From a bacterium (lineage in GTDB: Bacteria; Armatimonadota; JACIXR01): a stretch of DNA of 46,149 nt. Position 1 is the first letter of the stretch. Every line of letters begins with the position of its first letter. The notes under the pieces are model-generated. The model did not search any database. It was not told the DNA's origin and saw only the letters and a program-made list of their open reading frames with translations. Both the position numbers and the translations under genes were made by a program. Shown one piece after another: positions 14,101 to 35,762 of the stretch. Location: assembly GCA_014360465.1 (NCBI GenBank), contig JACIXQ010000009.1:1-46149 (forward strand). The letters are read 5' to 3'.

Positions 14101-15989
14101 AGTTGTGCGTCAAATTCCACCGCCTTCGCCGGCTTAAGATTATAGCAACGAGGCCAAGCTGGTCTCCATTCGTTGTTGGGAAGGCGGGACACGAAATCCT
14201 CGTTCCAGTGTTCGTTTACGGGAGCGAAATCGGTATAGTTTGAATAATAGCCGTAAAGCCATCCAAGCGATTGCTGTTTCTTGGTGTATTCCTTGAGCGC
14301 TTCGTCCCCGCCCTTTCTTGGACCAGCCTTAGTCCTAAGCGTGAACGATTCGCCGGCATCCCGCCAAGTCGTCTCGTGGCTGAGTTTCATCAGTTTCCTT
14401 ATCCCATAAGACCATAGCTCCCTCTTGCAGAGCTCATGCTCCTCATCGAAACCCTCTTTTGATGTTACTTCCTTCAGCCATCCCATATGATAGAGGTGTT
14501 CGCCAGCGAGCTTTCCCACAGGGGAGGGTGGATTGGCTATGGTGGGCAGTGTCTCCTCAAATAGTGGGGATACGGTGAGGAAAATCCTTTCAAAGAGGTC
14601 ATTTCTTTGTCCATCGGTTTTGGGGATGTATTTTGTTCCGCCAGCGAAGCGGGCGGAATTCTCCTTCTTCCAGGAGTCAAAGTAGAGCTCGGAAGCGTTG
14701 GAGTTATACCAATCTATCCAGCAGGATATGAAGAGCGGTGTTTTATCCCTGATGAGAAGGACGGAGGGACGGGCGAGCTCAAGATAAGGAACCCTTATCA
14801 GCTCGGGGTTTCCCTGAAGTTCATCGGCATAGCCGAGTGATAGCTCGCTCGCCTTGCCTCCCAGACAGGTGGTCTCTATCACGAGTGATTTCTGCCAGAG
14901 CCAGAGGCGATATTGCACATCCCCATATTGAGAGGAGAAATGCACAGTGAGGATGCCATCTGATAGGTCAGCGGAGCGAAATTCCATCCTCTCGGTTTCC
15001 TTTTTATCCTCAAATTTTATCCCGCCTTCCCTCATCGGTCGGCAGATTCTCTTCCCATTGAAGAAGACCTCAATTTCGCCAAATGTTCCATCGCTTGGTT
15101 TGTAGACATATTTCAAATTCCCATCTTTGCCGCTGTATTCAAAGGTAAACTCGTTATCACCCGATTGGTAAGCTTTTGTCTCAAAAGAGGTTTCATAGTT
15201 TGTCGGAAGTATCGTTTCCTTGCGGGTAGGGAAGGGAAGGACGCCGGGTCCAGTATTAGTTCCAAGATTTTGCCCTGGGCGTGGCTCTATGTTTCTTTTC
15301 GGGCGTGGAGCGAAGCTAAGGGGTTTGAGTTCCTCCTTATAGAAATAGAGGGAATCAAAGTAGATGGTGCTGAAGACCTCGTTGGAGCATCCCCGGACCT
15401 CTATGCCGGTGAAGGAGCAAGGGAAAGAAATCTGTTTGAGGATAGATTCGTCTATCCTTCGGTGAGCCAGGAACCATTCCTTCCACATAACATTCCAGAA
15501 ATAGATGCGGAAGGGCTTGCCGGCTGAATCAACGAAATGGATATCAATTTCCACCCTTGGGTTATTTTTGTCCAGGGGTTCCCAGCCCCAGTTATTTCCG
15601 TAAATCCAGAGGTTGATGCAATCAAAATCACCCTCTATAGGAATGGGCTTAGGTGGTTTGATGATGAACCTGCTATCAGCTGATTTGCCCGAGAAACTCA
15701 CCTTGCAGACATAATCGCCCCACATTTGCTGTTCCCTGCTTCTTCGCACTTCTACATTAGCGCCATCGTAGCATTCAACCTTCCATCCTTCAAGGTTTTC
15801 GAAATCAACCAAGGGTTTGCGTTCCTCTTGCCTGTTCGCCCACACCATCTCATAGGGACGCTCGCCAATCTTCTCGTTTGGTGCAATCTCGTTTATGACG
15901 GGAACGACCTTCTCCGGTTGCTGAGCCATAATTATCCCTCCTTTGACAAGGCAAAACACAAGAAAAGCTAAAAGAAAGATTTTTCTCAT
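11118..15989 (-). CDS. Very large secreted glycoside-hydrolase-like protein with LamG domain
   Basis: The 1623-aa protein starts with a signal peptide (MRKIFLLAFLVFCLVKGGIIMAQ). A CBM-like beta-sandwich follows (about 40-210), then a second beta-rich region. A probable TIM-barrel core (about 490-860) carries HETTWRDAG, YTDVHTCVPPWGYCDYDAR and LECDIDMGHSPFWGQ. Then come beta-sandwich domains, an NPCBM-like domain (about 1214-1370) and a LamG/concanavalin-type domain (GLVAYWKFDEGEGD, about 1385-1590). The architecture suggests degradation of a complex extracellular glycan. The catalytic family is not one I can name; endo-acting GH101-like or alpha-galactosidase-like barrels are possible comparisons. 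The last 30 residues look unrelated to LamG. AAGGTGA precedes the ATG. Confidence 0.85.
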   Translation of the reverse strand: MRKIFLLAFLVFCLVKGGIIMAQQPEKVVPVINEIAPNEKIGERPYEMVWANRQEERKPLVDFENLEGWKVECYDGANVEVRRSREQQMWGDYVCKVSFSGKSADSRFIIKPPKPIPIEGDFDCINLWIYGNNWGWEPLDKNNPRVEIDIHFVDSAGKPFRIYFWNVMWKEWFLAHRRIDESILKQISFPCSFTGIEVRGCSNEVFSTIYFDSLYFYKEELKPLSFAPRPKRNIEPRPGQNLGTNTGPGVLPFPTRKETILPTNYETSFETKAYQSGDNEFTFEYSGKDGNLKYVYKPSDGTFGEIEVFFNGKRICRPMREGGIKFEDKKETERMEFRSADLSDGILTVHFSSQYGDVQYRLWLWQKSLVIETTCLGGKASELSLGYADELQGNPELIRVPYLELARPSVLLIRDKTPLFISCWIDWYNSNASELYFDSWKKENSARFAGGTKYIPKTDGQRNDLFERIFLTVSPLFEETLPTIANPPSPVGKLAGEHLYHMGWLKEVTSKEGFDEEHELCKRELWSYGIRKLMKLSHETTWRDAGESFTLRTKAGPRKGGDEALKEYTKKQQSLGWLYGYYSNYTDFAPVNEHWNEDFVSRLPNNEWRPAWPRCYNLKPAKAVEFDAQLAKIVKQKFGIDCSYTDVHTCVPPWGYCDYDARVPGAGTFAATFYAYGELLLNDQLTYGPTFSEGTWHYMYAGLVTGNYAQCPNYDFFNEPLNVTFDLLKLHPLECDIDMGHSPFWGQGFEEKEDARYPDENLDRLIGATIAYGHIGLLTGRNAKENCRLYYMIQQVAKRYAMEKVKKIEYADENNRFHNVTEAILTGVINESRLYVEYENGLNIFVNWSRDKEWRLPEELTKITGRKIILPPSGWCAFDDKGFFEASHLKQGNRIDEVISPEYIYLDGRGKWTENDFLSARYACARIPLGEGKEQIVNVDNKEIGVKVSGQIKCYALNYDGEPQKEVPVRYSRGYAFIPCEAAVHSYLIQHLKEGQVASNFELKLSTDKVAPGDSIQGKLKLGPFAEPFKIEDLELVFENGYRTKIEPGKKELKAGEIGEQSVQFSLPRDLPYDEHCWVIARIKGDKEELVAYADFFTIPPFEINVDNNRVNLKDGKAELVFNFKNNLKGTTKGKVKFSIDNPDLLIEPTEFTLSQREQSLKVRLIQKKAEEIEKATLMVEVQLYDLSLAKIFKLGVESYQPVIANFYDGSLPFQWKICFRGGEEQPGDSKTGAIFERRKGMPVGGIEKDGLFSHPPYVGGVGWTSATFEKIKLPKEPCEFHAYIGLMDGGDLSDGVDYTVLVITGDGKEIEVLKEHGEQKKWKEVTADLSPFAGREVQFKFIADVGPNDNSTADWACWGEPIIRAKRRVYVISLKEMSGLISPENFRKGLVAYWKFDEGEGDIVQDGSGLGNRGEIINAQWVEGKSGWALRFDGKSSSVEVRHSDFLTPDKFTIIAWIKPESFISTDRGPMILSKYGGLWKGYMLLLEGTTGKPSLHIDTPQKEISVTSSEPVEIGKWSHIAATYDGKVARIYVNGVLKGSAEAELTHDTGVKLTIGKASWFEGAYFQGIIDEVKIYNRVLSEEEIRADYEGKGVTFFNFLYPLNYPVKNIRFLKKTLFVII

Positions 15990-22740: not shown

Positions 22741-23247
22741 TTACGGGTCTGTGTTAAGGTCTAAAAGTCTCCCTTTCCAGTCGCTCGCTCCGCCGAGGTC
22801 GTATTCATCATCACAAAAGTATATCCTTCCCGCCACTATATACCCTCCAATCCCTATTATCGCCTTCTTGCCCTTCTCTATCGTGCATTCCTCCTCTGCT
22901 ATCCTGATGAAATTAATCCGGGGATAATTGTAGAAAATCTCCACTTTATCTATGATGATGAAATCTCCTGTAGCGAGCTGGCGGAATAGTTGTCTCCAGC
23001 CCTCTTCAAGCAAATCCCGCCACATATATCTCGGGGCGTTTCTCACCTTTACATATTTAGCAAGATGGAGATTGGCATTTACGACATTCTTCCCCATCTC
23101 GCTGGCGAGATTTCTCAGGGCGCTCGTTTTTCCCGTTCCCCACTTCCCCAAGAGGAGGAAAACAGCCCGTCTATGGAGGGATGATTTGAGGAAAGCCCTC
23201 ATTGCCTCAACCGCAGAATCCCTTCTCTCCAAGAAATCCTTAGGCAT
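22741..23247 (-). CDS. brxF: BrxF-like small P-loop ATPase
   Basis: The 168-aa single-domain P-loop protein has Walker A LGKWGTGKTSALRNLA (about residues 31-46), then VVNANLHLAKYV and a Walker-B-like FIIIDKVEIFYNY (about 95-107), in which Lys follows the Asp. This order and size match BrxF, the small ATPase of BREX type 3, whose homologues carry a DNIEILF-like Walker B. It overlaps the upstream methyltransferase stop by 8 bases, so the two are translated as a pair. The family call is from pattern memory, not an alignment. A generic AAA/KAP-type ATPase is the alternative. Confidence 0.6.
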   Translation of the reverse strand: MPKDFLERRDSAVEAMRAFLKSSLHRRAVFLLLGKWGTGKTSALRNLASEMGKNVVNANLHLAKYVKVRNAPRYMWRDLLEEGWRQLFRQLATGDFIIIDKVEIFYNYPRINFIRIAEEECTIEKGKKAIIGIGGYIVAGRIYFCDDEYDLGGASDWKGRLLDLNTDP

Positions 23248-25564
23248 TGTTTTTTATCTCTTCTTCTGCCATTTCCAGAAGGTTGCGAGCCTTGTAAGGT
23301 GTATTTGACCAAAGCCCTTTTCTCCTCAAAATCTCCTTCACCTCCACCATCCACCAATAACTACCCCTCCTATACCATTCCTTCAAACCCTGCACCATAA
23401 TCTCTTCGGGAGGTAAGTTTTTCTCCTCGCCCGCTTTGAATTTTCGCCACCAACTTTCAAATTTTTTCACCTGCTTCAATCTTTTTATCTTCTCCCATTC
23501 ATCAAGTTCCTCCTCCGTTGGTGCCCGCCATTTCCCTTCCTCATTAACGAAGTTCTCATCAAGCAAATCCTCCAGGCTCCGCTTGAGCTTCGTTGAGCCG
23601 AGAGCCTGCAGGAAAAGGGGATGGATCTCGCTGTAGCTTTTCGGTTCCTGGAGGAGTTTCATCAACCAGTTGAGGGCGGATGTTTCATCGGTGATGGTGG
23701 CGAATTCTCCTGAAAGAGAACCTTGTGCCATTTTGGGAAACTGCCCGGGGAGGAAATAATAGCCATCTATTTCCTGGAAATATTCTTTCAATAGATTGAG
23801 GAAACTTTCTCCAAAATCCTTCAAGCCCTTTCTAACCAGCTCAGCAAGCGATATCCCCTGAGATAAGCACCAGCCGATGAATTCGCTGTGAAGCCTTCTC
23901 GCTTCCCTTTCCTCGTTCTTCGTCACTGGTAATTTTCTCAATCTTTCCTCAAGCCAGTCAATAACTTCGTCAATTTCTATTCTTTTCTCCACTTCCTTCT
24001 TGATATGATTGCTTATCCCCGGCTTATAGGCATGGACGAGGACATCGTAGCCAACTGCTCCATCAGTTGTCACCTGTTTGAAAGTCCTCTGCATCTTATC
24101 AAAGACGCCTATATAGGATATCTCAAAGCCGGTGTTCTTGAGGGCGGTCTGTATGGCGTTCCAAATCTCCGTGCGTGAATTATGGAATGTCAGGGAAAGG
24201 AATCTTCCTGGCTTCAGGACGCGAAATACCTCTTTGAAGGCTTTCTCCATCAATTCCTGGTATTCTTTAACTCCTTTTTTCTGGAAGGGGTTAATGATGG
24301 CTTCTTCCTCAATTTTGGTGAAATGCCCGAGCCAGGCTTCCCAGACGAAGTTGAGCTCTGAATAATTTATGTTGGCGCCATATGGTGGGTCGGTGAAACA
24401 GTAATCAATTGAGCTATCGGGAATGCGTGACAAATCCGTCGCCGATTGGGTGGAGATGATGACAGTACCTTTGGGGCTACTCGAATTAAAACTCTCACTA
24501 ATGCTTTTTGATTTTCGGGAAAAAATATATTCCAAATTCCATTCTGTTTGAAGACTTGGAACATATAATGTGCCGTGGAGTATTTTCTTAGCCCAATCTG
24601 TTGCATGGTATCGAGTAGCCTTGCTTCCCATCATTATGGAAAAGGATGTTATAATAAATTTTAACTTATCCTCCACCCCTTTTGAGAAAGCACCTGCCTC
24701 TTCCCAGAGCCTGGCGAGGGCCCAGAGATTTCGCTTCGTGAAGAATTGGTCAACCCGTCTGATACCCCTCGCCATGGGTTGGCGGGTATTGTATCCCATC
24801 GGGAATTCATTTCTCGGATACCAATAAGGGATTTCCCTTTCCTCTATCTCCTCAAGTCTCTTCAAATCAAATTCATCAACCTCGTCCTCTCTCCTCCCAC
24901 AGCGTGGGCATTTGTAATTCACACTAACGGGTTCAGTCCTCACTAATACAGCTCTCTGCTTGTTCAGCTCTACTGAACAGCGAGGGCATTCCCAGCTTTT
25001 CAGGACCTCCGCACCCCTCACAGCAACATCCCAGAATCGCATCTCCGTTTCGCAGATTGGGCACCTATAGACATCGCTCCAGATTGTGTAGATTATCTGA
25101 GCGCTATCCCCGCATCTCCTACATTTAGTCTCATAGAGCCACTCCATCTCCTCCCTTACCCTCTCCCTTATCTCGGATACCGCCTTTTTGAATTCCTCGG
25201 GATTGATGGGAGTCGTGTAATTCTTCGCAATGAAGGTTGCGGAGGGAGAGAGGTCTATGAGGATGGCGTTGCGACCAGTCAAGAGGGCGGCAACGCCCGT
25301 CATTCCCGAGCCACAGAAGGGGTCAAGGACGATGTCGCCGGGGGAGGTGAAATGCTCAATGAGTTTGGCTATCCCCTTAGGAGGAACCTTCGTCCAATAC
25401 ATATGGACATTGTAGATTGGGTCGTTCTTGCCCGATTTTATGTCCTCCATATAAATGGAGGGGTTATAGGAATCTGTCTCAGGGTTATAGGGTTTGCCAA
25501 ACTCCCGAACGAAATCGGCTAAATATGGATTCTCATCCCAAGAAAATAGCTTTTCCTTTTCCAT
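23240..25564 (-). CDS. Zn-ribbon adenine-type DNA methyltransferase (PglXI-like)
   Basis: This is an amino-methyltransferase of 774 aa. SAM motif I VLDPFCGSGMTGVAAL lies near residue 78 and catalytic motif IV CFTDPPYGAN near 390. Between them are two CxxC pairs (CRRC...CPIC and CPRC...CPRC, about 145-225) forming zinc ribbons. This fits COG1743-type adenine methylases, which serve as PglXI in BREX type 3. The C-terminal 300 residues are helical, possibly for target recognition or complex formation. Start is uncertain: ATG 25564 (MEKEKLFSW) begins the conserved-looking part, while ATG 25657 follows a GGAGGAG that belongs to the adjoining repeat. It is the first gene of a pair with the BrxF-like ATPase. 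Confidence 0.85.
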   Translation of the reverse strand: MEKEKLFSWDENPYLADFVREFGKPYNPETDSYNPSIYMEDIKSGKNDPIYNVHMYWTKVPPKGIAKLIEHFTSPGDIVLDPFCGSGMTGVAALLTGRNAILIDLSPSATFIAKNYTTPINPEEFKKAVSEIRERVREEMEWLYETKCRRCGDSAQIIYTIWSDVYRCPICETEMRFWDVAVRGAEVLKSWECPRCSVELNKQRAVLVRTEPVSVNYKCPRCGRREDEVDEFDLKRLEEIEEREIPYWYPRNEFPMGYNTRQPMARGIRRVDQFFTKRNLWALARLWEEAGAFSKGVEDKLKFIITSFSIMMGSKATRYHATDWAKKILHGTLYVPSLQTEWNLEYIFSRKSKSISESFNSSSPKGTVIISTQSATDLSRIPDSSIDYCFTDPPYGANINYSELNFVWEAWLGHFTKIEEEAIINPFQKKGVKEYQELMEKAFKEVFRVLKPGRFLSLTFHNSRTEIWNAIQTALKNTGFEISYIGVFDKMQRTFKQVTTDGAVGYDVLVHAYKPGISNHIKKEVEKRIEIDEVIDWLEERLRKLPVTKNEEREARRLHSEFIGWCLSQGISLAELVRKGLKDFGESFLNLLKEYFQEIDGYYFLPGQFPKMAQGSLSGEFATITDETSALNWLMKLLQEPKSYSEIHPLFLQALGSTKLKRSLEDLLDENFVNEEGKWRAPTEEELDEWEKIKRLKQVKKFESWWRKFKAGEEKNLPPEEIMVQGLKEWYRRGSYWWMVEVKEILRRKGLWSNTPYKARNLLEMAEEEIKNNA

Positions 25565-25641
25565 TTTCACTTTATGGTATTTTACGATAATTTTATTCCC
25601 TTTGTCCATTATTTTTGACTGGTCGTTGTGTTTTATAGAAA

Positions 25642-25798
25642 GGCGAGATTGCCACATCTCCTCCCGTCATTTTGAATTCCCCTTTTTCGTCATTCAGAGG
25701 CTTTCCGTAAGGAAAGCCGAAGAATCTCGTATTTGCCACGCCTTCCCTTGGGGGAAGGCTCTAAATGACGGGAGAGGGGTGGATGAAGGGCGAGATTG
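25642..25798. repeat. Inverted-repeat element with two inner hairpins
   Basis: A perfect 12-bp inverted pair CTCCCGTCATTT (25661-25672) and AAATGACGGGAG (25763-25774) encloses two perfect 8-bp hairpins: GGCTTTCC-GTAA-GGAAAGCC (25699-25718) and GCCTTCCC-TTGG-GGGAAGGC (25740-25759). The 10-mer GGCGAGATTG flanks both sides (25642-25651, 25789-25798). The words GTCATT, AGAATCT and GCGAGATTGCC recall short palindromic repeats scattered in many bacterial genomes. It touches the alternative methyltransferase start. Only one copy occurs in this window. The rest of the gap to 25911 holds only GGGAGG before the next ATG. Confidence 0.75.
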
Positions 25799-25911
25799 TC
25801 TGCTTCCTATCTGTGATTTGCAATTAAACTTTGCTCCTCACCGAAAAAGCGAATTTACACATAAATTTCAAACATTTATCATTCCTTAAATAAAAAATGG
25901 GAGGTATATGA

Positions 25912-26865
25912 ATGAATTATAAAGTCTCTCTTCGCTCCTCTTCCCCGATATCCCTTCCCGGCATCGTTGACTGTAACAGCCCCGCCGTTTGGATTGAAGA
26001 CACATTCTACATATTCACCTCCGCAGGACATCCTTATCGCAGTTATGGGAAGGACCTTTTCTCCTTGAGCGAACCTCAGCCAGTCAAATTTAACAACGAG
26101 GTTAATGGTGGAAGATGGATTGAATCGGTTCTATTAGGAGAAGAGGGTATTCTCTACGGATGGTATCACCTTGAACCATATGGCATATGCCCGGGCACAA
26201 ACCTCACAGCTCCTCAAATAGGTGCTTTGCGTTCCCTTGATAACGGTGCAACTTGGGAGGATTTGGGAATAATCTTGAAAGCACCGGATGAAACCCTTGA
26301 TTGCAAAGCCCAGAATGGTTATTTCGCAGGTGGTCATGGAGATTTCTGCGTCCTATTGGACGAGAAAAGTGATTGGCTCTATTTCTTCTTTGGCAATTAC
26401 GGAGGAAAACTTGAGGAGCAAGGCGTATGCATCGCAAGGATGCCCTGGGAAGAAAGGGATAAGCCTGTTGGTAAAGTTTGGAAATGGTATGAAGGTAAAT
26501 GGGAAGAACCGGGTATAAATGGGAGGGCAACTCCTATATTTCCAGCAACAAGAGCTTGGCAGGGGGAAGACTGCGAAGCATTTTGGGGTCCTTCAATTCA
26601 CTATAATACACACCTTCGCTGTTATGTTATGCTACTTAACAGGGCAAAGGGGCAAGGATGGAAGCAGGAGGGAATATATATAAGCTTCAATGAGGAATTG
26701 GCTAATCCCTTTAATTGGTCTCAACCACAAAAGCTCTACGAAGGGGGACGCTGGTATCCCCAGATTATCGGCTTGGGAGATAAAGGAACCGATAAATTAG
26801 GGGGAGAGCGTGCCCTCTTCTTTATGGGAGGAATTTCTCAGTGGGAAATAATTTTCTCTCCCTAA
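25912..26865 (+). CDS. Five-bladed beta-propeller glycosidase-like protein
   Basis: The 317-aa protein has no signal peptide. It shows repeated beta-propeller blades of GH43/GH32/GH130 or sialidase style: SPAVWIEDTFYIFTSAG near the start, IGALRSLDNGATWEDLGIIL (an Asp-box-like turn), FWGPSIHYNTHLRCYVMLL, and a C-terminal ALFFMGG. Acidic residues at expected positions (D20, D119, E225) could be catalytic but I cannot fix the family. GGGAGG precedes the ATG. It lies between the two arms of the BREX-like locus and has no evident link to DNA modification. Confidence 0.75.
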   Translation: MNYKVSLRSSSPISLPGIVDCNSPAVWIEDTFYIFTSAGHPYRSYGKDLFSLSEPQPVKFNNEVNGGRWIESVLLGEEGILYGWYHLEPYGICPGTNLTAPQIGALRSLDNGATWEDLGIILKAPDETLDCKAQNGYFAGGHGDFCVLLDEKSDWLYFFFGNYGGKLEEQGVCIARMPWEERDKPVGKVWKWYEGKWEEPGINGRATPIFPATRAWQGEDCEAFWGPSIHYNTHLRCYVMLLNRAKGQGWKQEGIYISFNEELANPFNWSQPQKLYEGGRWYPQIIGLGDKGTDKLGGERALFFMGGISQWEIIFSP

Positions 26866-26984
26866 ACCCACATATCCACGCATTTTCTCCATAACCTAAA
26901 CGATATAAGAAAGCCCAATTAAGTCCCTCTATATTCGCTAATCAACCTCATTTTCCTTAGTCAATTTGAGTTGGCTTGATGCTG

Positions 26985-27012
26985 ATGACAATAAACCAAA
27001 TTTTCCTATAAT
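26985..27012 (+). promoter_or_regulatory. Promoter of the brxC-pglZ-TPR operon
   Basis: ATGACA (26985-26990, five of six -35 bases) is followed by a 16-base spacer and a perfect TATAAT (27007-27012). The start would be near 27019, and AGGAG precedes the ATG at 27042. Thus the right arm has its own promoter. Confidence 0.55.
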
Positions 27013-27041
27013 TTTTAAAAAAAGACTTCAGGAGATGATAT

Positions 27042-30000
27042 ATGATGAGGGTAAAAGAGCTTGTCCAAATAGAGGAAGTTGAAGAGGTTGTCCAGATAAC
27101 CAGCCACGACCCGGAGAAAATAGTTGAAAGTTTCGTCGCTGCTGAGAACCTTGAAGAACAGATTTGCTTGCTTCTTGAGCGTTTCCTCAAAAGGACGGAG
27201 AAGAACTCCTTCTTCATCATCGGTAGTTACGGAAGCGGTAAAAGCCATCTTCTCTCCTTCCTCGGTGACCTCTTCGCCTATCCTCATCTCTGGGACAAAG
27301 TGAAAAGCGAGAAAATCCGTTCCCTCGCTCCCCAATTCAAGGAGAAGCGATTTATCCCTATATGGATTCATCTTCCCTCCCTTCAAGTTGACCTCCGTGA
27401 TTATGTTCTTCTTGAATTTGAGAAGCAGTTAAGCGAACAGCTTAAGAAACCCATTGCCCTTGCTCCCGGCGTCTATTTCCAAACCGCAGAGAAGGACCCT
27501 CGCTTCCTGGATTTTCTCAGAGAGAACTTAGATAAAGAGAGCCCACTTGAAGCCTGGGAATATCAAAAATCCGCCCATCCTGAGGAAGCATTGGAATTAG
27601 CGAGGAAGTTTTTCAATGGATTGGGCATTCGCCCCCAAATAGAGGAAGATGTGAGAAGCGTTATGGAGAGAGCTCTAAACATCCTCTACGAAGAGCTCGG
27701 CGGTGAGACAGCTATCGTTTTGATAATTGATGAGCTCTATGATTTCCTTCGTGGTAAGGAAAGCGGCTCACCCGAGTTCGCCCGTGATATCGGTTTCCTT
27801 CGTGACCTTGGGGAAGCCTCAAGGGATTACAACTTTTTCGTCATAGCCTCGCTTCAGGAGGATATCCTTGACCCCGAGAAGACGGGAGCGGAAAGGGAAA
27901 ACCTCAATCGCATCCGCCAAAGATATGAGAACCTCCAGATTCCCTATTTCAACCTCCAAAGGGTGGCAAGGGAAAGGGTTTTGAGGAAAGACGATTGGCA
28001 GGTGGAAGAGCTCAGAAAGCTTTATTCCCTATTGCGGGAGAAATATTTCCCTTCCCTCGCTTTTGACGAAGCTTCCTTCGTTGACCTTTATCCCATTCAT
28101 CCAGCCATCCTTTATTTCTACGAGAGGGTTGTTAGGGAAGTAGGTCCCAGGAGTATCATCTCTTTTCTCTCCAAAAGCGCCCTACAGATTCAGAACGAAC
28201 CCCACTACACGCTCGTCACTATTGCCGAGCTCTTTGACCATTTGCGTGAAGAGCTATCCACTCACACAACCTTCGGAGCGCTTGTTCGGGATGTTCTTCC
28301 CTACTTCCAACTGTATATTCCCACCTGGCTTGAGGAGGAACAGGAATGGGCAGAGAAGGCGATAAAGGCGTTGATTATCCTCAATATTGTGGGTGAAAGA
28401 CGCACTTGCCAGCAACTGGCTGAGCTAATTCTTTACCGGGGAATAGAGGATGTTAACTATCAATTCTTCGCCAAATTGATGGAAAGGCTTCACCAGAGGG
28501 CGAGTCCCTATCTCTATCTTGCCGAGGGTTCGGGAGTAAATGCCATATATGTCGTCCAGAAGGAGGGCGTGGATGTTGATGTTTTGATAAACGACGAGAA
28601 ATCAAAGATAAAGGATGATGACCCACACCTCTGGAGCGAGATACTGAAATTCTTGAAGGAGTATAGAGGGGCTCCACGGGAACTTGAGGTGGGCAAGTGG
28701 TGCACTGTGCGAGTCGATTGGAACAATACGGAGAGGAAAGGAGAAATGGTATTCGTAGCGGAGGAGGGAAAGGACTACATACTGGAGGAAGCTAAGGCGA
28801 GGTTAGAGGATATTGATAACGATTTCGTCCTGCTTATCCTCAGCCCAAATCTTCCCAGGGATTTCCTCATTCCCTCGGAGGTCCCCGATGAGAGGATACT
28901 CATCTGGCGACCCGGCGAGCTGGGGATTGAGGACATAGAGATTCTCAAGAGAAGATTGGCGATATTGAACTTGCTAAGAACGGGTCAGAAGGAGGAAATC
29001 TGGAACGAGCTCCAAAGGAAAGCCATCACCTCCCAGGAGGAGGTCGAGAGATTGGTTGAAGATATATATTTTACCCGAGGTGAGCTTTCAAATCTATCTG
29101 CGATAAGAGGGAATTTTATGGATGCGGTCTCCGAAAGCGTTAAGGGGCTTTTGAATAGAAGATTCACCGCTCACCCAAGTTTCAATCGCAAAATAAACAT
29201 CAGGATGGTAAGGGATACTATTCGCTATATAAGCAGGTTGCACTCTCCGAACCAAACGCTCCAAAACTACGCTGATACTTTCGCCATTGCCGATTTGCTT
29301 GTGAAGGAGAGTGCTGGTTTCTACAAAGCCAATGCTAACAATGAAGCTTACAAACTTATAATTAACACTCTGAAGGAAACCAAGTTCTGCCCGATATCGG
29401 ATATCTATCGGAAATTGAGGGACAAACCATATGGACTGACAGAGGAAGTTGTGGAGTTTATCATCCTCTCATTAGTTGGGGAAGGAATCGTCAGCGTCAA
29501 AAGCATTACTGGCAAGGAATTCTTCCGCCAAAACCTGGAGGAGCTTATGGGGATAAAATTCATAGACCAAAACCACGCCCTTCATCTTTTGGAGATACAA
29601 ATAACACCGGAGATTCTTTCGTTTTTGAAGGAGATTTATGGAGAGGTAGAAATAAAAAAGGAGCAGGATAAGGTGGACCTTTGGGAGGTGTTGCAAAAAC
29701 TCCCTGATGAGTTCAATATAGAAAGGCTTAAAGAGAAGATTTTTAATTTCCATCCTCCTTTCAATAAAGACATCCTTATAGACAAGTTTGATAACCTGAA
29801 GATGCGCATCGAGCCTCTTTTCAACATCCTTCTGGAGAAGGATTCTCCAGAGGATGGCTTCCGAGCCCTGGGAGAATTCATCAGAAAGGATTACAAATCG
29901 CTCATAGAGGATTGGAGAAGTTTTAAATCTTTAAAGGAGATATCCGAGCTACAGGAATCAATAAATAGGGAGATAGATTATCTGCTTCAAGTATCCCTCC

Positions 30001-30761
30001 CGAAAGGGGATGAGTTGCTGGAGACCGTAGAGGTTCTACTTGCTGAGCTTCAGGGAAAGGCGGTTGAGAATGTAGACTATCTCAGGAATTGGTTAGGTAG
30101 GGTTGAGTTCTTCAAGAACAACTACATAGAGAGATATACCGCCCTGCATGAGGAGATGGTGGGAAATTCTGCTCCCTGGTGGGAGGAGATTAAGGGGCTG
30201 AAGAGTTCCGATAAGCTGGCGAGTCTGCGGGATTTGTGGGAGATAAGGGGCGAGGTTGGACCATCAAATCCTGCCCAGCGGATTATGGATGGACTATATA
30301 ACCTGGAAAAGCAACGATGTAGTAGCTTTTATAAGGACAGCCTGCGGAACAATCCAACCTGTCCCCACTGTCATTTCCACCCTGATAAACCTCCCGATTT
30401 TCGGTCCAAGCTCACCAAGTTGGAGAATGAGCTTGAGGAGGAATGGCGTAACATAATAGAGGAACTGAATAAGGAAAGGGAGAAGATAATGGAGCAGGTG
30501 CAGAAAGCCACATCAATGGCGAGGCTGGGAATAGAAAAATTACTTGAAGGGGCACCCGTCCAGCTTTCAAGTGAGATGAAGGAAGTTTTGTTGAGGGCGG
30601 TAGGCAAACTGGAAATCATAGAGGTTGACCTCCGACCATACCTGAAGGATGGCGGGATTTACATACCCTACGATTTATTGGACAGGATAAGGAAGGCGGT
30701 TGAGGAGGCGGTAAGAGGTAGGAAGGAGGATAATATCAGGATAAGACTGAGATTGAGCTAA
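27042..30761 (+). CDS. brxC: BrxC-like P-loop ATPase (DUF6079 type)
   Basis: This 1239-aa ATPase has Walker A GSYGSGKSHLLSFL (about residues 61-74) and Walker B AIVLIIDELYDFL (about 224-236), followed by a sensor-like FFVIASLQED. The long C-terminal part is mainly helical, with charged coiled stretches and a late Cys/His cluster (CSSFY...CPHCHFHP, about 1093-1115) that may bind zinc. Size, order and the N-terminal SFVAAENLEEQICLLLERFL fit BrxC/DUF6079, the core ATPase of BREX systems. PglZ follows after 13 bases. In BREX this protein is thought to act with PglX and PglZ in marking or excluding phage DNA; that role here is inferred from neighbours. Confidence 0.85.
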   Translation: MMRVKELVQIEEVEEVVQITSHDPEKIVESFVAAENLEEQICLLLERFLKRTEKNSFFIIGSYGSGKSHLLSFLGDLFAYPHLWDKVKSEKIRSLAPQFKEKRFIPIWIHLPSLQVDLRDYVLLEFEKQLSEQLKKPIALAPGVYFQTAEKDPRFLDFLRENLDKESPLEAWEYQKSAHPEEALELARKFFNGLGIRPQIEEDVRSVMERALNILYEELGGETAIVLIIDELYDFLRGKESGSPEFARDIGFLRDLGEASRDYNFFVIASLQEDILDPEKTGAERENLNRIRQRYENLQIPYFNLQRVARERVLRKDDWQVEELRKLYSLLREKYFPSLAFDEASFVDLYPIHPAILYFYERVVREVGPRSIISFLSKSALQIQNEPHYTLVTIAELFDHLREELSTHTTFGALVRDVLPYFQLYIPTWLEEEQEWAEKAIKALIILNIVGERRTCQQLAELILYRGIEDVNYQFFAKLMERLHQRASPYLYLAEGSGVNAIYVVQKEGVDVDVLINDEKSKIKDDDPHLWSEILKFLKEYRGAPRELEVGKWCTVRVDWNNTERKGEMVFVAEEGKDYILEEAKARLEDIDNDFVLLILSPNLPRDFLIPSEVPDERILIWRPGELGIEDIEILKRRLAILNLLRTGQKEEIWNELQRKAITSQEEVERLVEDIYFTRGELSNLSAIRGNFMDAVSESVKGLLNRRFTAHPSFNRKINIRMVRDTIRYISRLHSPNQTLQNYADTFAIADLLVKESAGFYKANANNEAYKLIINTLKETKFCPISDIYRKLRDKPYGLTEEVVEFIILSLVGEGIVSVKSITGKEFFRQNLEELMGIKFIDQNHALHLLEIQITPEILSFLKEIYGEVEIKKEQDKVDLWEVLQKLPDEFNIERLKEKIFNFHPPFNKDILIDKFDNLKMRIEPLFNILLEKDSPEDGFRALGEFIRKDYKSLIEDWRSFKSLKEISELQESINREIDYLLQVSLPKGDELLETVEVLLAELQGKAVENVDYLRNWLGRVEFFKNNYIERYTALHEEMVGNSAPWWEEIKGLKSSDKLASLRDLWEIRGEVGPSNPAQRIMDGLYNLEKQRCSSFYKDSLRNNPTCPHCHFHPDKPPDFRSKLTKLENELEEEWRNIIEELNKEREKIMEQVQKATSMARLGIEKLLEGAPVQLSSEMKEVLLRAVGKLEIIEVDLRPYLKDGGIYIPYDLLDRIRKAVEEAVRGRKEDNIRIRLRLS

Positions 30762-30774
30762 GGGGGAGGATGTT

Positions 30775-32859
30775 ATGCTTGATGAAATCCTTAAGAGGCT
30801 TATAGATGAAAATTTGAGAAATAAATACAGGTTTCTCTGGATAATTGATGAATTGGGCATAACTCAAGGACGCATTAACCATATCTATCCCAATCTATCC
30901 ATTCATTTTTACGACAATCCTATAGATTTTCGCCTCTTTTATGAGCCATTGAGGGAGAAGATGGAGGAAGAGGAGCCCGCCAATGCGGTTGTCATTTCCT
31001 ATAAGAAAGAGGATATACCACCCGATGTGAGAAGATACTGCCCAAATCCGTTATATCTGCGTCCCTCCATCCTTTTCTCTGCCCTTCATCCAATCATTGA
31101 CGACCTGCTCCTTGAGGGTGAATTTGTAGAGCGTTTGGCGATTTTCTATGATGGCATCAACAGGGGAAGGGAGGAGACGATTCGTTTCGTCCTCCAGAAT
31201 CTTCTTGAGATTCCTCCTCTTCCCCCTACGCTATCCCTCAAAGATGCTTTCAATCTCCTTCAAGCGTATCATCTAAGGGGAAGGGGAATACCCACGGGGT
31301 TCTTGAAACCCTATCTCGTTTCCCTGCAAAATCTTGGCTATTCGCTGGAGAAGCTCCTTGTCAATTCGGAATATTTTGAGGAACTTTTGAAGCAGGTCCT
31401 TCTCGCTTGGATAGAAAAGAGGGCAGGAATTGAGCTACCAGGCGTTGATGAGGTGGCAAGGAAGCTCCTCAGCTCCGACATAGGGCTTGAGAGGAACAGG
31501 CTTTTGGAAGAAGCTTGGAAGAGGATTAACTGGAAGGAAATAGCGAAAGCCATTCCTCCGCATTCGGTTCAAACTCTAATATCGCCCTTGCTTCCCCAGG
31601 AGTTCTACGAATGCCTTTCTGAAGATGTTCGGCAACAGTTATGCAGAAATTGGAGGGATGAAGCTCTTCTTAAATCTGCTGAAACCTTGAGAAAGGAAAG
31701 AAAGGCTTCGGAGAAATTGGGAAGTGTGCTGGATTTGGCGAACTTTCTTAGGGAGTTCTCCCTGCCAGCGGAGGAGCCATTAAAGAGGGCGTTGAGATGG
31801 CAGGAGATTGCGAGGAATATAGCTTTTCAATGGAGAAACATAAGCGGGGTAGATGGTGGGTCAGCTCTTCGGAAGGAATGGGAGAAGCTTCTGGAGCGAG
31901 CGAATGAGGAATTCGTCAAATTCGTTCTGCAAAATTATCCAAGGTGGATAAAAGCTAAACCCCGTCCGATTCTATCCTGCGATGTCCTTTCAGAAGCTGT
32001 GCTTCCCAATTTGAGGCGAGATGTTCCTGTTTATCTCCTTGTGGTAGATGGGATGACATATGCCCAATGGGCGATGATGGAGGATGAGGTAAGGGGTGAG
32101 ATGAGGGATTACAAATTTGAGGATAGGAAGTGCTTCTCCATTTTGCCCTCCGCTACTACATATTCCCGCAATGCGATATTTGCCGGAGAACTGCCTCGGG
32201 AGATAGGGAAGAGCTATGGCGAGGGTTATCTTACAAGCAATGAAGGAGAAGAGCAAATGCTTAGGGATTGGCTAAAGAGGAACAAATTGGGAAATAAAAG
32301 TCTGATATATTGCAAGTGGAGGGAGGATTGGGGAAGGGCTTTGAAGGAGAAAGCGGATTTGAAGGCATTCATATTGAATTTTACTGACGAGATAACGCAT
32401 ATCACTGGAAAGGTGGCGGAGAGCGAGGAAGAGCTTCTGGCGCTGGTTAGGACGGCTTATCATTTTCGTCCTTTTTCTGATTTGTTTTCAGCGGTGAAGG
32501 AGGATGGGGCGGTTTTGGTGATAACATCGGACCATGGGAGCATCTGGGTGCGGGAGACTTTCCAAATTCCCACTATGGAACATGCGAGGTCTTTGGGGAG
32601 GAGCAGTCGCTATTACAGGCTTAGCGACCATTTGAATGAGACCGAGCGGAAGTTTATTAATCTCGTGAAGATGTGGTCAGTGCAATATTTGTCCAGGGAT
32701 GTCTCCGAGGATTGGGGATTACCAAAGGGGAACTATTTATTCGCTTATGGCAATTTTATGTTCTCTGAGAGGAAACAAATAGTTAGCATGGCTGTTCACG
32801 GTGGGATTTCCCTCTGGGAGATGTGCGTTCCCTTAGTTGTTCTATCGCCTAAAATTTAA
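30775..32859 (+). CDS. pglZ: PglZ-domain protein (alkaline-phosphatase superfamily)
   Basis: The 694-aa protein carries a C-terminal PglZ domain with metal-binding landmarks of the alkaline-phosphatase fold: LLVVDGMTYAQW (about residue 420), LPSATTYSRNAIFAG (about 460), ITSDHGS (about 583) and VHGGISLWEMCVPLVVLS (about 673). The N-terminal 400 residues are helical, as in BREX PglZ. PglZ is the defining gene of BREX; some members show phosphodiesterase or nuclease activity. Ribosome-binding site is GGGGGAGG. It lies between brxC and the TPR gene with short gaps, clearly one operon. Confidence 0.93.
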   Translation: MLDEILKRLIDENLRNKYRFLWIIDELGITQGRINHIYPNLSIHFYDNPIDFRLFYEPLREKMEEEEPANAVVISYKKEDIPPDVRRYCPNPLYLRPSILFSALHPIIDDLLLEGEFVERLAIFYDGINRGREETIRFVLQNLLEIPPLPPTLSLKDAFNLLQAYHLRGRGIPTGFLKPYLVSLQNLGYSLEKLLVNSEYFEELLKQVLLAWIEKRAGIELPGVDEVARKLLSSDIGLERNRLLEEAWKRINWKEIAKAIPPHSVQTLISPLLPQEFYECLSEDVRQQLCRNWRDEALLKSAETLRKERKASEKLGSVLDLANFLREFSLPAEEPLKRALRWQEIARNIAFQWRNISGVDGGSALRKEWEKLLERANEEFVKFVLQNYPRWIKAKPRPILSCDVLSEAVLPNLRRDVPVYLLVVDGMTYAQWAMMEDEVRGEMRDYKFEDRKCFSILPSATTYSRNAIFAGELPREIGKSYGEGYLTSNEGEEQMLRDWLKRNKLGNKSLIYCKWREDWGRALKEKADLKAFILNFTDEITHITGKVAESEEELLALVRTAYHFRPFSDLFSAVKEDGAVLVITSDHGSIWVRETFQIPTMEHARSLGRSSRYYRLSDHLNETERKFINLVKMWSVQYLSRDVSEDWGLPKGNYLFAYGNFMFSERKQIVSMAVHGGISLWEMCVPLVVLSPKI

Positions 32860-32879
32860 AACAAAAGGAGGTTTGAAAA

Positions 32880-35762
32880 TTGGAAGAAAATATCATAAAA
32901 GAGCTTCACAGTATAGCAAGTGATATAAAAGAACCGGAATGGAGGTTCAGCGCATTGCTCTGGGTGGGGCAAGCTTATGCGGCTGCTGGAATGAAGGATA
33001 AAGCAATTCATACTTTTCGTGAAGCCGCCGCGGTGGCGAGGACTGAGGAGCAGTGGAAAGATTTAGGAATTCTCGCTAGCGCTTGGCGAGCGGCAATGAT
33101 AGGAGCATTAGAGGACACAAATGACCTTTTAAAGGAGTTTTTTTCTTTATTTAAAAAGAGAATAGGAGAGCAAAGTGAAGGCGAATTAAACGATTTCCTG
33201 GTCGATGGTTCATATGAGCTTCAAGTATATATATCTGAGCTTTGCGATGCGTTGGGTACCCCAACCTCGGCTAATATGAAAGAAATCGGGAAATGTGTGG
33301 CAGAAATTTTCAAACAAAATTTCTTTATCTTTACATCGGACCCTTTAACCAAATTTTTTAAGGAAGTGGGCAAAGCCGCAATAGATGAATATGAGTATAA
33401 AATGCTTTTATTATCGATAATTGATTTCTGTCTAAACCATTTAGGTGTTGAACCTGTACTTGAATTAGCAAGGGGTGTTGAAGACAAGGAGGTTCGCTCC
33501 GAAGCATTTAAGGAAATAGCAGTGCGTTTGGCAGAAATGGGGAAATACGAGGAAGCAAAAGCAGTAGCCGACGAGGGCATAAGATATATAGACCACGCAA
33601 TATCTGCGGATGGGGCAATAGCGAAAGCCATGGTCAAAGGTGGGGAAAAAGAAAGGGCTATGAGCATATTAGAAGAGTTATATGAGGAAGTGGAAAAGCT
33701 ATACGAGGAACATAAGGAGTCTGAGGATTTACAATATTTAACAAAAAATTTACTAAAAATAACAAAAAATATGGTTGAAATTGGGGAAAGGACAAGAGCG
33801 TTAGCAAAGATGGGTCGGATTTACGAGTTTGTGAAAAAAATAGAGAAACCATCTGAGCGTAGCTATCAACTTGCAGAGATTGCAATAGATATGGCTGAAG
33901 CGGGGGAAATGAAGGAATCCGCAAAGATTTTAGAAGAAGCGATATCCATTGCACAAGGAGGGGGGGAAGAATATGAGCGCTCAAAAGGCATAAACGAGCT
34001 TATAGAAACTGTCTCTGAGAAAAAGGATTACGAAATCGTTCTCCAAATCGCAAGGAATATGGAAAAATTAGGGTCTCGAGCTCGCGCGCTTTTAGGAATA
34101 GCCCAGATTTTTATTAAGGGCAAGGAGAAGGAAAAGGCTCTTGACATTTTGAAAGAAGCTCGTGAAACAGCAAGGGTGATAAAGGAGGAAACCGAGAGGT
34201 CCCGGATGCTATCTATTATCGCGGAATCTATGGCTGAACTAGGAGAGTTAGAAGAGGCAGAATGGATAGCGAACAATATCGATGATGAGCTTGAACAAGC
34301 TAATATCCTATTAACTATAGCCTCGTTATGGGAAAAAAGGGGAGAGAGCGATGAAGCTTTGAGACTTTCCGAGAAAGCGTTGAAAATCACAAAGGCATTT
34401 TCTCTCCCTGAGTTATCCTGGGAACTTCATTCCAAAATTGCTCCTGCCCTTGCGAGGGGTGGAAGATATGAGGAAGCGATGAAAATAGCAAGGGGTATAG
34501 AGGAAAATTATTATAAAGCAACTGCGTTGCTGGGAATTGTGGAAGCTTTACTGCGTGCCGGGGATATAACTGGTGCCTTGGAAATTCTTTATGAAGCTGA
34601 AAATATTACAAGATGTACGGGACCTTTGGAAATTACCGAGGAAGCTGATGATATTATGAGATATTTAAGAAAACCAGAGCCAAGGGATGCTCTTCTGGCT
34701 GATATAGCACTTTCTCTAAACAAAGCAGGCCTGGTAGAAAAATCTCTCCAATTACTAAGTATGCTTGATTCGGCGCAACTTCGGGTTGACACGATAGAAC
34801 AAATGGTCGATTACAGAATAAAAAAGGGTGATTGGGAAACAGCCATTCAAATAGCCGAGCAGTGTAGCCATCCCCAAAAGCAAGCCGAACTTCTCAGGCG
34901 AATATCCATTTCATTAGAGCGGGTTGGAAGGAAAGAAGAAGCAAAAGAGCTTTGGCGGAAAGGCAGAAATATAGAAATGATACGGGGAAAAGAAATCGAT
35001 AAAGGCATTTGGGTGGAATTGTGCCCTTACGGCACCTGTACCTGCTTCTTTCCTTTCTATTATGAACACTGTCTTGACCCTGAAGCCTGGAGAATCAGCC
35101 AAATAGCTAAGGAAGGAAATTTCTTAGAAGCTTTTAAGGAATTAAAAGAACTCGAATCCGACGAATCAAAAGCGAGCGCTATTATGTGGATTGCGGAGTG
35201 GCTCTCAGAAAAATTTAAGGAAAAGAGACTGGGGGTCTTTGATGAAGCGCTGGAAGTTGCGAAGGAGCTTGAGGATGATTTCGTTCGTTCCTCTGCCCTT
35301 ATGAGACTTTCCTCCATCTTCCTCCGCGTTGGTGCTTATGATGAAGTCAGGCAAATTTGTCTGGAAATGCCTGATGTAACAAGAAGAGCGGAATTGCTCG
35401 TTCAACTTGCTTCTGCCTTGGCAAGAGCGGAAAAGATGGACGAGGCAAGGAAAACCATTGACGAAGCCCTTTTAGAGGTTAGAAAAATTGAAGCTCCTTT
35501 TGACCGCTCAAGGGTTCTCCTTGAAATAGGAAAATTCCTTCTTGAATGTGGAGAAGTTGACGAGGCTCTTGATATCTCTCGGGAGATAGAGTATGAAGAT
35601 GAGAGAATAGACCTCCTCATAGATATAATGCGCTCAATGGTTAGGCAAGGCAGGATTGAAAGTGCTCTTGATTTGGCAAGAAGCTTGGAGAATAAATTTC
35701 GACAGGCTGAAGCCCTCGCCATCATCGGCGAGACGATGCTGGAAATTGAGAAGAAAGATTAA
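32880..35762 (+). CDS. Giant TPR-repeat protein with internal cysteine patch
   Basis: The 960-aa soluble protein is built almost wholly of TPR-like helix pairs of about 33-38 residues, e.g. AVRLAEMGKYEEAKAVADEG, AIDMAEAGEMKESAKILEEA and ESMAELGELEEAEWIANNID. At about 707-735 the solenoid is broken by a Cys-rich insert (WVELCPYGTCTCFF, then YYEHC) that could bind metal. TTG 32880 is set by AGGAGG (32866-32871). It follows pglZ by 20 bases and is last in the operon. The 5' half looks more A+T-rich than pglZ. No catalytic motif is seen. A scaffold or sensor role in the BREX-like complex is inferred from position only. Confidence 0.85.
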   Translation: MEENIIKELHSIASDIKEPEWRFSALLWVGQAYAAAGMKDKAIHTFREAAAVARTEEQWKDLGILASAWRAAMIGALEDTNDLLKEFFSLFKKRIGEQSEGELNDFLVDGSYELQVYISELCDALGTPTSANMKEIGKCVAEIFKQNFFIFTSDPLTKFFKEVGKAAIDEYEYKMLLLSIIDFCLNHLGVEPVLELARGVEDKEVRSEAFKEIAVRLAEMGKYEEAKAVADEGIRYIDHAISADGAIAKAMVKGGEKERAMSILEELYEEVEKLYEEHKESEDLQYLTKNLLKITKNMVEIGERTRALAKMGRIYEFVKKIEKPSERSYQLAEIAIDMAEAGEMKESAKILEEAISIAQGGGEEYERSKGINELIETVSEKKDYEIVLQIARNMEKLGSRARALLGIAQIFIKGKEKEKALDILKEARETARVIKEETERSRMLSIIAESMAELGELEEAEWIANNIDDELEQANILLTIASLWEKRGESDEALRLSEKALKITKAFSLPELSWELHSKIAPALARGGRYEEAMKIARGIEENYYKATALLGIVEALLRAGDITGALEILYEAENITRCTGPLEITEEADDIMRYLRKPEPRDALLADIALSLNKAGLVEKSLQLLSMLDSAQLRVDTIEQMVDYRIKKGDWETAIQIAEQCSHPQKQAELLRRISISLERVGRKEEAKELWRKGRNIEMIRGKEIDKGIWVELCPYGTCTCFFPFYYEHCLDPEAWRISQIAKEGNFLEAFKELKELESDESKASAIMWIAEWLSEKFKEKRLGVFDEALEVAKELEDDFVRSSALMRLSSIFLRVGAYDEVRQICLEMPDVTRRAELLVQLASALARAEKMDEARKTIDEALLEVRKIEAPFDRSRVLLEIGKFLLECGEVDEALDISREIEYEDERIDLLIDIMRSMVRQGRIESALDLARSLENKFRQAEALAIIGETMLEIEKKD

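What the first reader, a model, noticed from the sequence alone, without database searches (positions are those of the whole stretch)
22741..35762. Split BREX-3-like locus without helicase or BrxA, with a giant TPR protein
Seen: a Zn-ribbon DPPY methyltransferase and a small P-loop ATPase on the - strand; a 1239-aa P-loop ATPase, a PglZ protein and a 960-aa TPR protein on the + strand. Known: BREX type 3 comprises brxF, brxC, pglXI, brxHII, pglZ and brxA. Here four of six have likely counterparts in two divergent transcription units, while brxHII and brxA are absent and the flanks are unrelated genes. Inference: a reduced or variant anti-phage system in which the TPR protein may take the role of a missing component.
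Basis: partly seen in the sequence, partly recalled or inferred. Interest (0 to 1): 0.85.

Follow-up and report, generated by a model that had tools for sequence, protein, structure and literature searches.

The report
Helicase-less BREX-like core, genus-conserved
The window holds a pared-down relative of the bacterial anti-virus system BREX, with the four core proteins but none of the usual DNA helicases; the same four genes recur in two sister species, so it is a conserved variant rather than a broken copy, while the large TPR protein next door is not part of it.

Summary
The genes are as described. On the minus strand are BrxF-like (22741-23247) and PglXI (23240-25657); on the plus strand are BrxC/DUF6079 (27042-30761), PglZ (30775-32859) and a 960-aa TPR protein.

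Both other held species of the genus carry the same four genes. PglXI and BrxF always overlap by 8 bp, and BrxC and PglZ are always 7-13 bp apart. Each species has the set at a different chromosomal site, and it diverges faster than its housekeeping neighbours.

Helicase: no BrxHII beside the system in any of the three. G001 has no match to the BrxHII model anywhere; this genome's two related helicases belong to Hma and DISARM loci. BrxL was not found. BrxA was not detected, but the models used miss one annotated BrxA, so that is inconclusive.

The TPR inference fails: the gene is absent from both sister species. A better accessory candidate is a ~220-aa Mrr_N winged-helix protein, orthologous in all three and beside BREX in two.

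Verdict: a new variant of Type-3-like BREX, reduced to counterparts of the X-B-C-Z set that Type 1 BREX needs for methylation and defence. Function is inferred.

The parts
22741..23247 (-). BrxF-like small P-loop protein, 168 aa; Walker A GKWGTGKTS and Walker-B-like IIIDKVEIF
   Evidence: PADLOC BrxF 3.2e-9, NCBIfam BREX_3_BrxF 7.9e-7, below its cut-off; 73% and 65% identical orthologues in G001 and G002; hhalign to canonical BrxF 91%; 8-bp overlap with PglXI in all three species
23240..25657 (-). PglXI/BrxXI adenine methyltransferase, 805 aa as the longest ORF; likely start ATG at ~25564. DPFCGSG and DPPY motifs with two 4-Cys zinc ribbons between them
   Evidence: PADLOC PglXI 2.1e-186; orthologues 70% and 68%; motifs
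25912..26865 (+). 317-aa DUF4185-like protein, not part of BREX; probable insertion between the two divergent units
   Evidence: weak DUF4185 match 9.8e-5, below cut-off; absent between the units in G001
27042..30761 (+). BrxC (DUF6079 AAA+ ATPase), 1239 aa; Walker A GSYGSGKS at residue 61, Walker B VLIIDE at 226
   Evidence: Pfam DUF6079 2.6e-70, PADLOC BrxC 1.4e-55; orthologues 58% and 52%; motifs
30775..32859 (+). PglZ phosphatase/nuclease-superfamily protein, 694 aa; active-site residues conserved with PorX (VVDGM, PSAT, TSDHG, HGGI)
   Evidence: BREX_PglZ_3 9.8e-37; PorX structures 7pv7/7pva 5.6e-36; orthologues 56% and 51%; motifs
32880..35762 (+). 960-aa TPR protein, 20 bp downstream of PglZ; accessory or bystander gene of this species only
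   Evidence: TPR_12 1.1e-21; no homologue in G001 or G002; unrelated to BrxHII or BrxA

Best explanation
This is a reduced, Type-3-like BREX anti-phage system kept by a whole bacterial genus. PglXI is inferred to mark host DNA by adenine methylation at a specific site, working as a complex with BrxF (the BrxB counterpart), the BrxC AAA+ ATPase and PglZ. Unmarked DNA would be handled by the same complex, with the PglZ nuclease as effector, and without a dedicated BrxHII or BrxL unwinding motor. A ~220-aa Mrr_N winged-helix protein, beside the set in two species and on contig C86 in this one, may supply the DNA-binding role usually given to BrxA. The TPR protein is a local neighbour, not a replacement subunit. 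Shown here: homology, intact catalytic motifs, conserved operon pairs, genus-wide retention, relocation between species, and lack of a BREX-linked helicase or BrxL. Inferred: methylation, restriction, complex formation and the role of the Mrr_N protein.
For: Profile matches for all four proteins and near-full-length profile alignment to canonical Type-3 BrxC, PglZ and PglXI. Four orthologues in both sister species with constant gene pairs. Active-site motifs intact. The set occupies three different chromosomal sites while the yidC-jag block stays syntenic; BREX proteins are 51-73% identical to the window's copies against about 68-84% for most genes of that block. BrxHII model: no match in G001; in G002 one distant match on another contig; in G000 two, in Hma and DISARM loci; positive controls score at 1e-243 or better. 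BrxL: none in the three genomes, controls positive. [quoted passage not shown] PMC6326788). PglZ is a metal-dependent nuclease (PMC12205998 title; PMC12839542). Mrr_N protein: orthologous in three species, beside PglZ in G001 and upstream of PglXI in G002, one Mrr_N match per genome.
Against: No phage or methylome data. The BrxF match is weak and partly generic P-loop. BrxHII is reported in only 77% of Type-3 loci, so lack of a helicase is not by itself exceptional. G000 is a 161-contig draft (97.8% complete), so a part could be missing; the same lack in G001 and G002 makes that unlikely. In G000 the Mrr_N gene is not linked to BREX.
Confidence: 0.7

Rival explanations
1. An ordinary Type-3 BREX that has lost or displaced brxHII and brxA in this lineage and still works through host helicases; a degraded member rather than a distinct variant.
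For: PglXI scores 620 bits on the Type-3 PglXI model, between canonical Type-3 (1143-1197) and BrxL-linked relatives (276-392). BrxHII is missing from 23% of Type-3 loci in the published survey.
Against: All four genes are intact with catalytic motifs in three species that are 51-73% identical, so the set has persisted. In trees the genus forms its own deep branch apart from both BrxHII-bearing and BrxL-bearing relatives. These trees are unrooted and partly affected by long branches.
Confidence: 0.2
2. One reading: the TPR protein replaces a missing component such as the helicase or BrxA.
For: It lies 20 bp after PglZ on the same strand, so co-transcription is likely.
Against: It is absent from both sister species that have the same helicase-less set. 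It has no profile similarity to BrxHII or BrxA.
Confidence: 0.04
3. A methylation-only (epigenetic) complex that has lost restriction and serves regulation or protection against other restriction systems in the cell.
For: The retained proteins correspond to the subunits needed for methylation in Type 1 E. coli BREX, where loss of BrxL abolishes defence but not methylation.
Against: PglZ active-site residues are conserved in all three species. Relocation and faster divergence look like a defence system.
Confidence: 0.15

Closest known systems
Type-3 BREX (BrxF, BrxC/DUF6079, BrxXI/PglXI, BrxHII, PglZ, BrxA)
   Same: Four of six components with near-full-length homology for the three large ones
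   Different: No BrxHII, BrxA not detected; PglXI has DPFCGSG/DPPY and two 4-Cys zinc ribbons, whereas the five canonical Type-3 enzymes examined have DPPF and one; separate branch in PglXI and PglZ trees
Halorarius halobius plasmid NZ_CP101162.1 locus (L125 10174-19996): methyltransferase-BrxA-174 aa-BrxC-like-PglZ
   Same: No adjacent BrxHII or BrxL; its BrxC (128 vs 44 bits), PglZ (114 vs 31) and methyltransferase (326 vs 247) score higher on profiles from this genus than on canonical Type-3 profiles; two zinc ribbons and DPPY
   Different: Has a gene annotated BrxA, all genes on one strand, archaeal plasmid; long branch, so kinship is uncertain; BrxC only 24% identical
PglXI-BrxC-PglZ-BrxL loci (L075, L081, L082 and others)
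   Same: PglXI with DPFCGSG/DPPY and extra zinc-ribbon cysteines; PglZ; no BrxHII
   Different: Carry BrxL where examined; BrxC of another type, with a PF10923 match in L081; PglZ ~960 aa
Type-3 BREX-Related (BR) systems of Rakesh and Krishnan 2026 (PMC12839542)
   Same: ATPase, PglXI-like methyltransferase, PglZ and small STAND-like protein together
   Different: BR systems have a DUF499 ATPase and a BrxHII-like helicase; here the ATPase is DUF6079 and there is no helicase

Membership tests
BREX (superfamily) | PglZ phosphatase/nuclease | tested here: met
   BREX_PglZ_3 9.8e-37, though below that model's cut-off (126.6 of 250 bits); Pfam PglZ over its cut-off; PorX structures 5.6e-36; active-site residues present
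BREX (superfamily) | BrxC/PglY-type ATPase | tested here: met
   DUF6079 2.6e-70; PADLOC BrxC 1.4e-55; hhalign 100% over 2-1236
BREX (superfamily) | Anti-phage activity and site-specific host methylation | not testable with these tools
   Needs methylome sequencing and phage assays
Type-3 BREX | PglXI/BrxXI methyltransferase with a zinc-finger insert | tested here: met
   PDLC02541 2.1e-186; insert between the two catalytic motifs carries two 4-Cys ribbons instead of one
Type-3 BREX | BrxF | tested here: met
   PADLOC 3.2e-9; NCBIfam 7.9e-7 below cut-off; hhalign 91%; 8-bp overlap with PglXI in three species. Weakest of the four assignments
Type-3 BREX | BrxHII SNF2-type helicase | tested here: not met
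   Absent from the locus and from both sister loci; no match in G001; G000 matches lie in Hma and DISARM loci; positive controls strong. The published survey finds it in 77% of Type-3 taxa
Type-3 BREX | BrxA | tested here: inconclusive
   PDLC02437 finds it in three canonical Type-3 relatives but not in this genus (best 0.49 in G000). The PADLOC models also miss the annotated BrxA of Halorarius, and PF08849 misses a Type-3 BrxA
Type-1 BREX | BrxL | tested here: not met
   PF13337: none in G000, G001 or G002; controls positive
Type-3 BR system | DUF499 ATPase and BrxHII-like helicase | tested here: not met
   ATPase matches DUF6079, with no DUF499 match reported; no helicase

The most novel reading that the evidence does not exclude
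A minimal BREX in which four proteins (methyltransferase, BrxF, BrxC, PglZ), helped by an Mrr_N winged-helix protein in place of BrxA, carry out both self-marking and phage restriction with no dedicated DNA motor, which would show that PglZ and BrxC are enough for exclusion.
Probability: 0.3. Interest if true: 0.7.

Novelty: new variant of a known kind. Interest (0 to 1): 0.48.

Why it matters
How BREX stops phages is still unsettled, and the roles of the helicase-like parts (BrxHII, BrxL) and of BrxA are debated. A naturally occurring, genus-conserved set that keeps counterparts of the subunits needed for both methylation and defence in Type 1 systems, and lacks the motor, is a ready test of which parts are essential.

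Tried and rejected
TPR as replacement: rejected. Helicase in trans: G000 has an Hma helicase (C110) and a DISARM helicase (C102), but G001 has no match at all, so the set does not depend on such a gene. BrxA by PF08849: uninformative, no control rang; replaced by PDLC02437, itself imperfect. Mrr_N protein as BrxA: no profile similarity, and the single-sequence model was too poor to use (pLDDT 39.8). BrxF structure: mean pLDDT 63.8, P-loop core only, no PDB match at E <= 0.001, so no statement about the BrxB-like cap. A first scan of genome contigs with BrxC found nothing. One search used a short, loosely chosen peptide; it found the jag orthologues only at E 0.02-0.08, and these were confirmed by blastp and synteny. 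Unrelated 243- and 357-aa genes beside the G002 set have no match to PADLOC families, and the 357-aa one no kinship to the TPR protein.

Full report
WHAT IS THERE. The window is the whole of contig C151 of a 2.69-Mb draft genome, G000. Its left part ends in a conserved yidC-jag block; then come, on the minus strand, a 168-aa P-loop protein and an 805-aa DNA methyltransferase, and on the plus strand a 317-aa DUF4185-like protein, a 1239-aa ATPase, a 694-aa PglZ protein and a 960-aa TPR protein. Profile searches name the methyltransferase PglXI (2.1e-186), the ATPase BrxC/DUF6079 (2.6e-70), the PglZ protein nearest to BREX-3 PglZ (9.8e-37, below that model's cut-off) and the small protein BrxF (3.2e-9, weak). 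Profile-profile alignment to canonical Type-3 sets collected here covers BrxC 2-1236, PglZ 21-686 and PglXI 38-779; BrxF reaches 91% probability.

IT IS CONSERVED, AND IT IS A UNIT. Both other held species of the genus carry the four genes: BrxC 58% and 52% identical, PglZ 56% and 51%, PglXI 70% and 68%, BrxF 73% and 65%. PglXI and BrxF overlap by 8 bp in all three; BrxC and PglZ are 13, 11 and 7 bp apart. In G001 the two pairs are divergent with about 118 bp between them; in this window the DUF4185-like gene lies in that gap; in G002 the pairs are about 6 kb apart. Among 291 held genomes of the phylum, no other has a close BrxC: the genus scores about 2,360-2,385 bits and the next best 111. 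A scan of one genome per species with the PglXI alignment found G001 at 69% and everything else at 37% or less.

IT MOVES AND EVOLVES LIKE DEFENCE. The block ending in jag is syntenic in the three species, with most genes about 68-84% identical, but what follows jag differs in each. The BREX genes follow jag only here; in G001 and G002 they sit elsewhere.

WHAT IS MISSING. BrxHII: the PADLOC model finds canonical relatives in the phylum at 1e-243 or better, nothing in G001, one distant hit on another contig in G002, and two hits in G000. Those two belong to other systems: C110 holds an SNF2 helicase, an HmaB-type methyltransferase and a DUF499 ATPase, and C102 holds an SNF2 helicase next to a DrmMI-type methyltransferase. 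BrxL: none in the three genomes, controls positive. BrxA: not detected, but the test is weak because the models miss the BrxA annotated in Halorarius and PF08849 misses a Type-3 BrxA.

THE TPR PROTEIN IS NOT THE SUBSTITUTE. It is found only in G000 and resembles neither BrxHII nor BrxA. A different gene is a better accessory candidate: a ~220-aa protein with a C-terminal Mrr_N winged-helix domain, matched once in each of the three genomes and orthologous along its length. It lies beside PglZ in G001 and upstream of PglXI in G002; in G000 it stays with its other neighbour, a ThiI/NFACT-R-type gene, on contig C86. Its N-terminal half was matched only in the genus. A role like BrxA's is an inference; no similarity to BrxA was found.

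WHERE IT BRANCHES. In maximum-likelihood trees of PglXI and PglZ the genus is a branch of its own, apart from BrxHII-bearing Type-3 sets and from sets that carry BrxL. The trees are unrooted and some branches are long, so loss versus ancestral absence cannot be decided. PglXI differs from the canonical Type-3 enzymes examined in its catalytic motifs (DPFCGSG, and DPPY rather than DPPF) and in having two 4-Cys ribbons. The nearest helicase-less arrangement found outside is on a Halorarius halobius plasmid: methyltransferase, BrxA, a 174-aa protein, BrxC-like, PglZ. Its proteins score better on profiles from this genus than on canonical profiles, but the kinship is uncertain.

HOW IT MAY WORK. 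[quoted passage not shown] BrxL is dispensable for methylation and of variable importance for restriction; BrxA is required only in some (PMC13326643; PMC9122589; PMC6326788). PglZ is a metal-dependent nuclease (PMC12205998), and BrxF has been proposed as the BrxB counterpart (PMC12839542). The four genes kept here correspond to that set. PglZ and BrxC motifs are intact. I therefore infer a methylate-and-restrict system with PglZ as effector and no dedicated helicase. No activity has been shown.

NOVELTY. A published survey reports BrxHII in 77% of Type-3 taxa and BrxA-like domains in all BREX types (PMC12839542), so a helicase-less Type-3-like locus is not unheard of. What is added here is an intact, genus-conserved, relocating four-gene form lacking both BrxHII and BrxL, with a candidate new accessory protein. 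It fails the BrxHII feature of Type-3 BREX and is filed as a Type-3-like variant, not as a Type-3 system.

Noticed in passing
L072 12823-14830 (G001 C7): Directly after BrxF, overlapping it by 8 bp, G001 has a second DNA methyltransferase (388 aa, PADLOC MTase_II 5e-151) and a 294-aa protein without a Pfam match that by eye has a PD-(D/E)XK-like motif (GIDIFFEGQPFDLKV): a possible Type II restriction-modification pair joined to the BREX operon.
   Followed up: partly
L069 1-1130 (G000 C110): CRISPR array, 30-bp repeat GTTTTGAGCCTACCTATAAGGGATTGAAAC at 66-68 bp spacing, 17 copies, beside an Hma system; two successive repeat-spacer units are identical.
   Followed up: partly
L035-L045 (several families of the phylum): BrxC-like proteins of about 1,270-1,450 aa with no BREX partner recognised within ~10 kb; some score better on the genus BrxC profile than canonical Type-3 BrxC does. 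An unlinked DUF6079-like family of unknown role.
   Followed up: partly
L075, L081, L082 and others: PglXI-type methyltransferases in loci with PglZ, a BrxC of another type and a Lon-protease-bearing BrxL: a PglXI-BrxL combination that does not fit the textbook Types 1 or 3.
   Followed up: partly
L125 10174-19996 (Halorarius halobius plasmid NZ_CP101162.1): Five-gene helicase-less BREX-like operon on an archaeal plasmid; its annotated BrxA is missed by PADLOC models.
   Followed up: partly
window 11118-15989: 1623-aa minus-strand protein with only a C-terminal Laminin_G_3 domain recognised.
   Followed up: no
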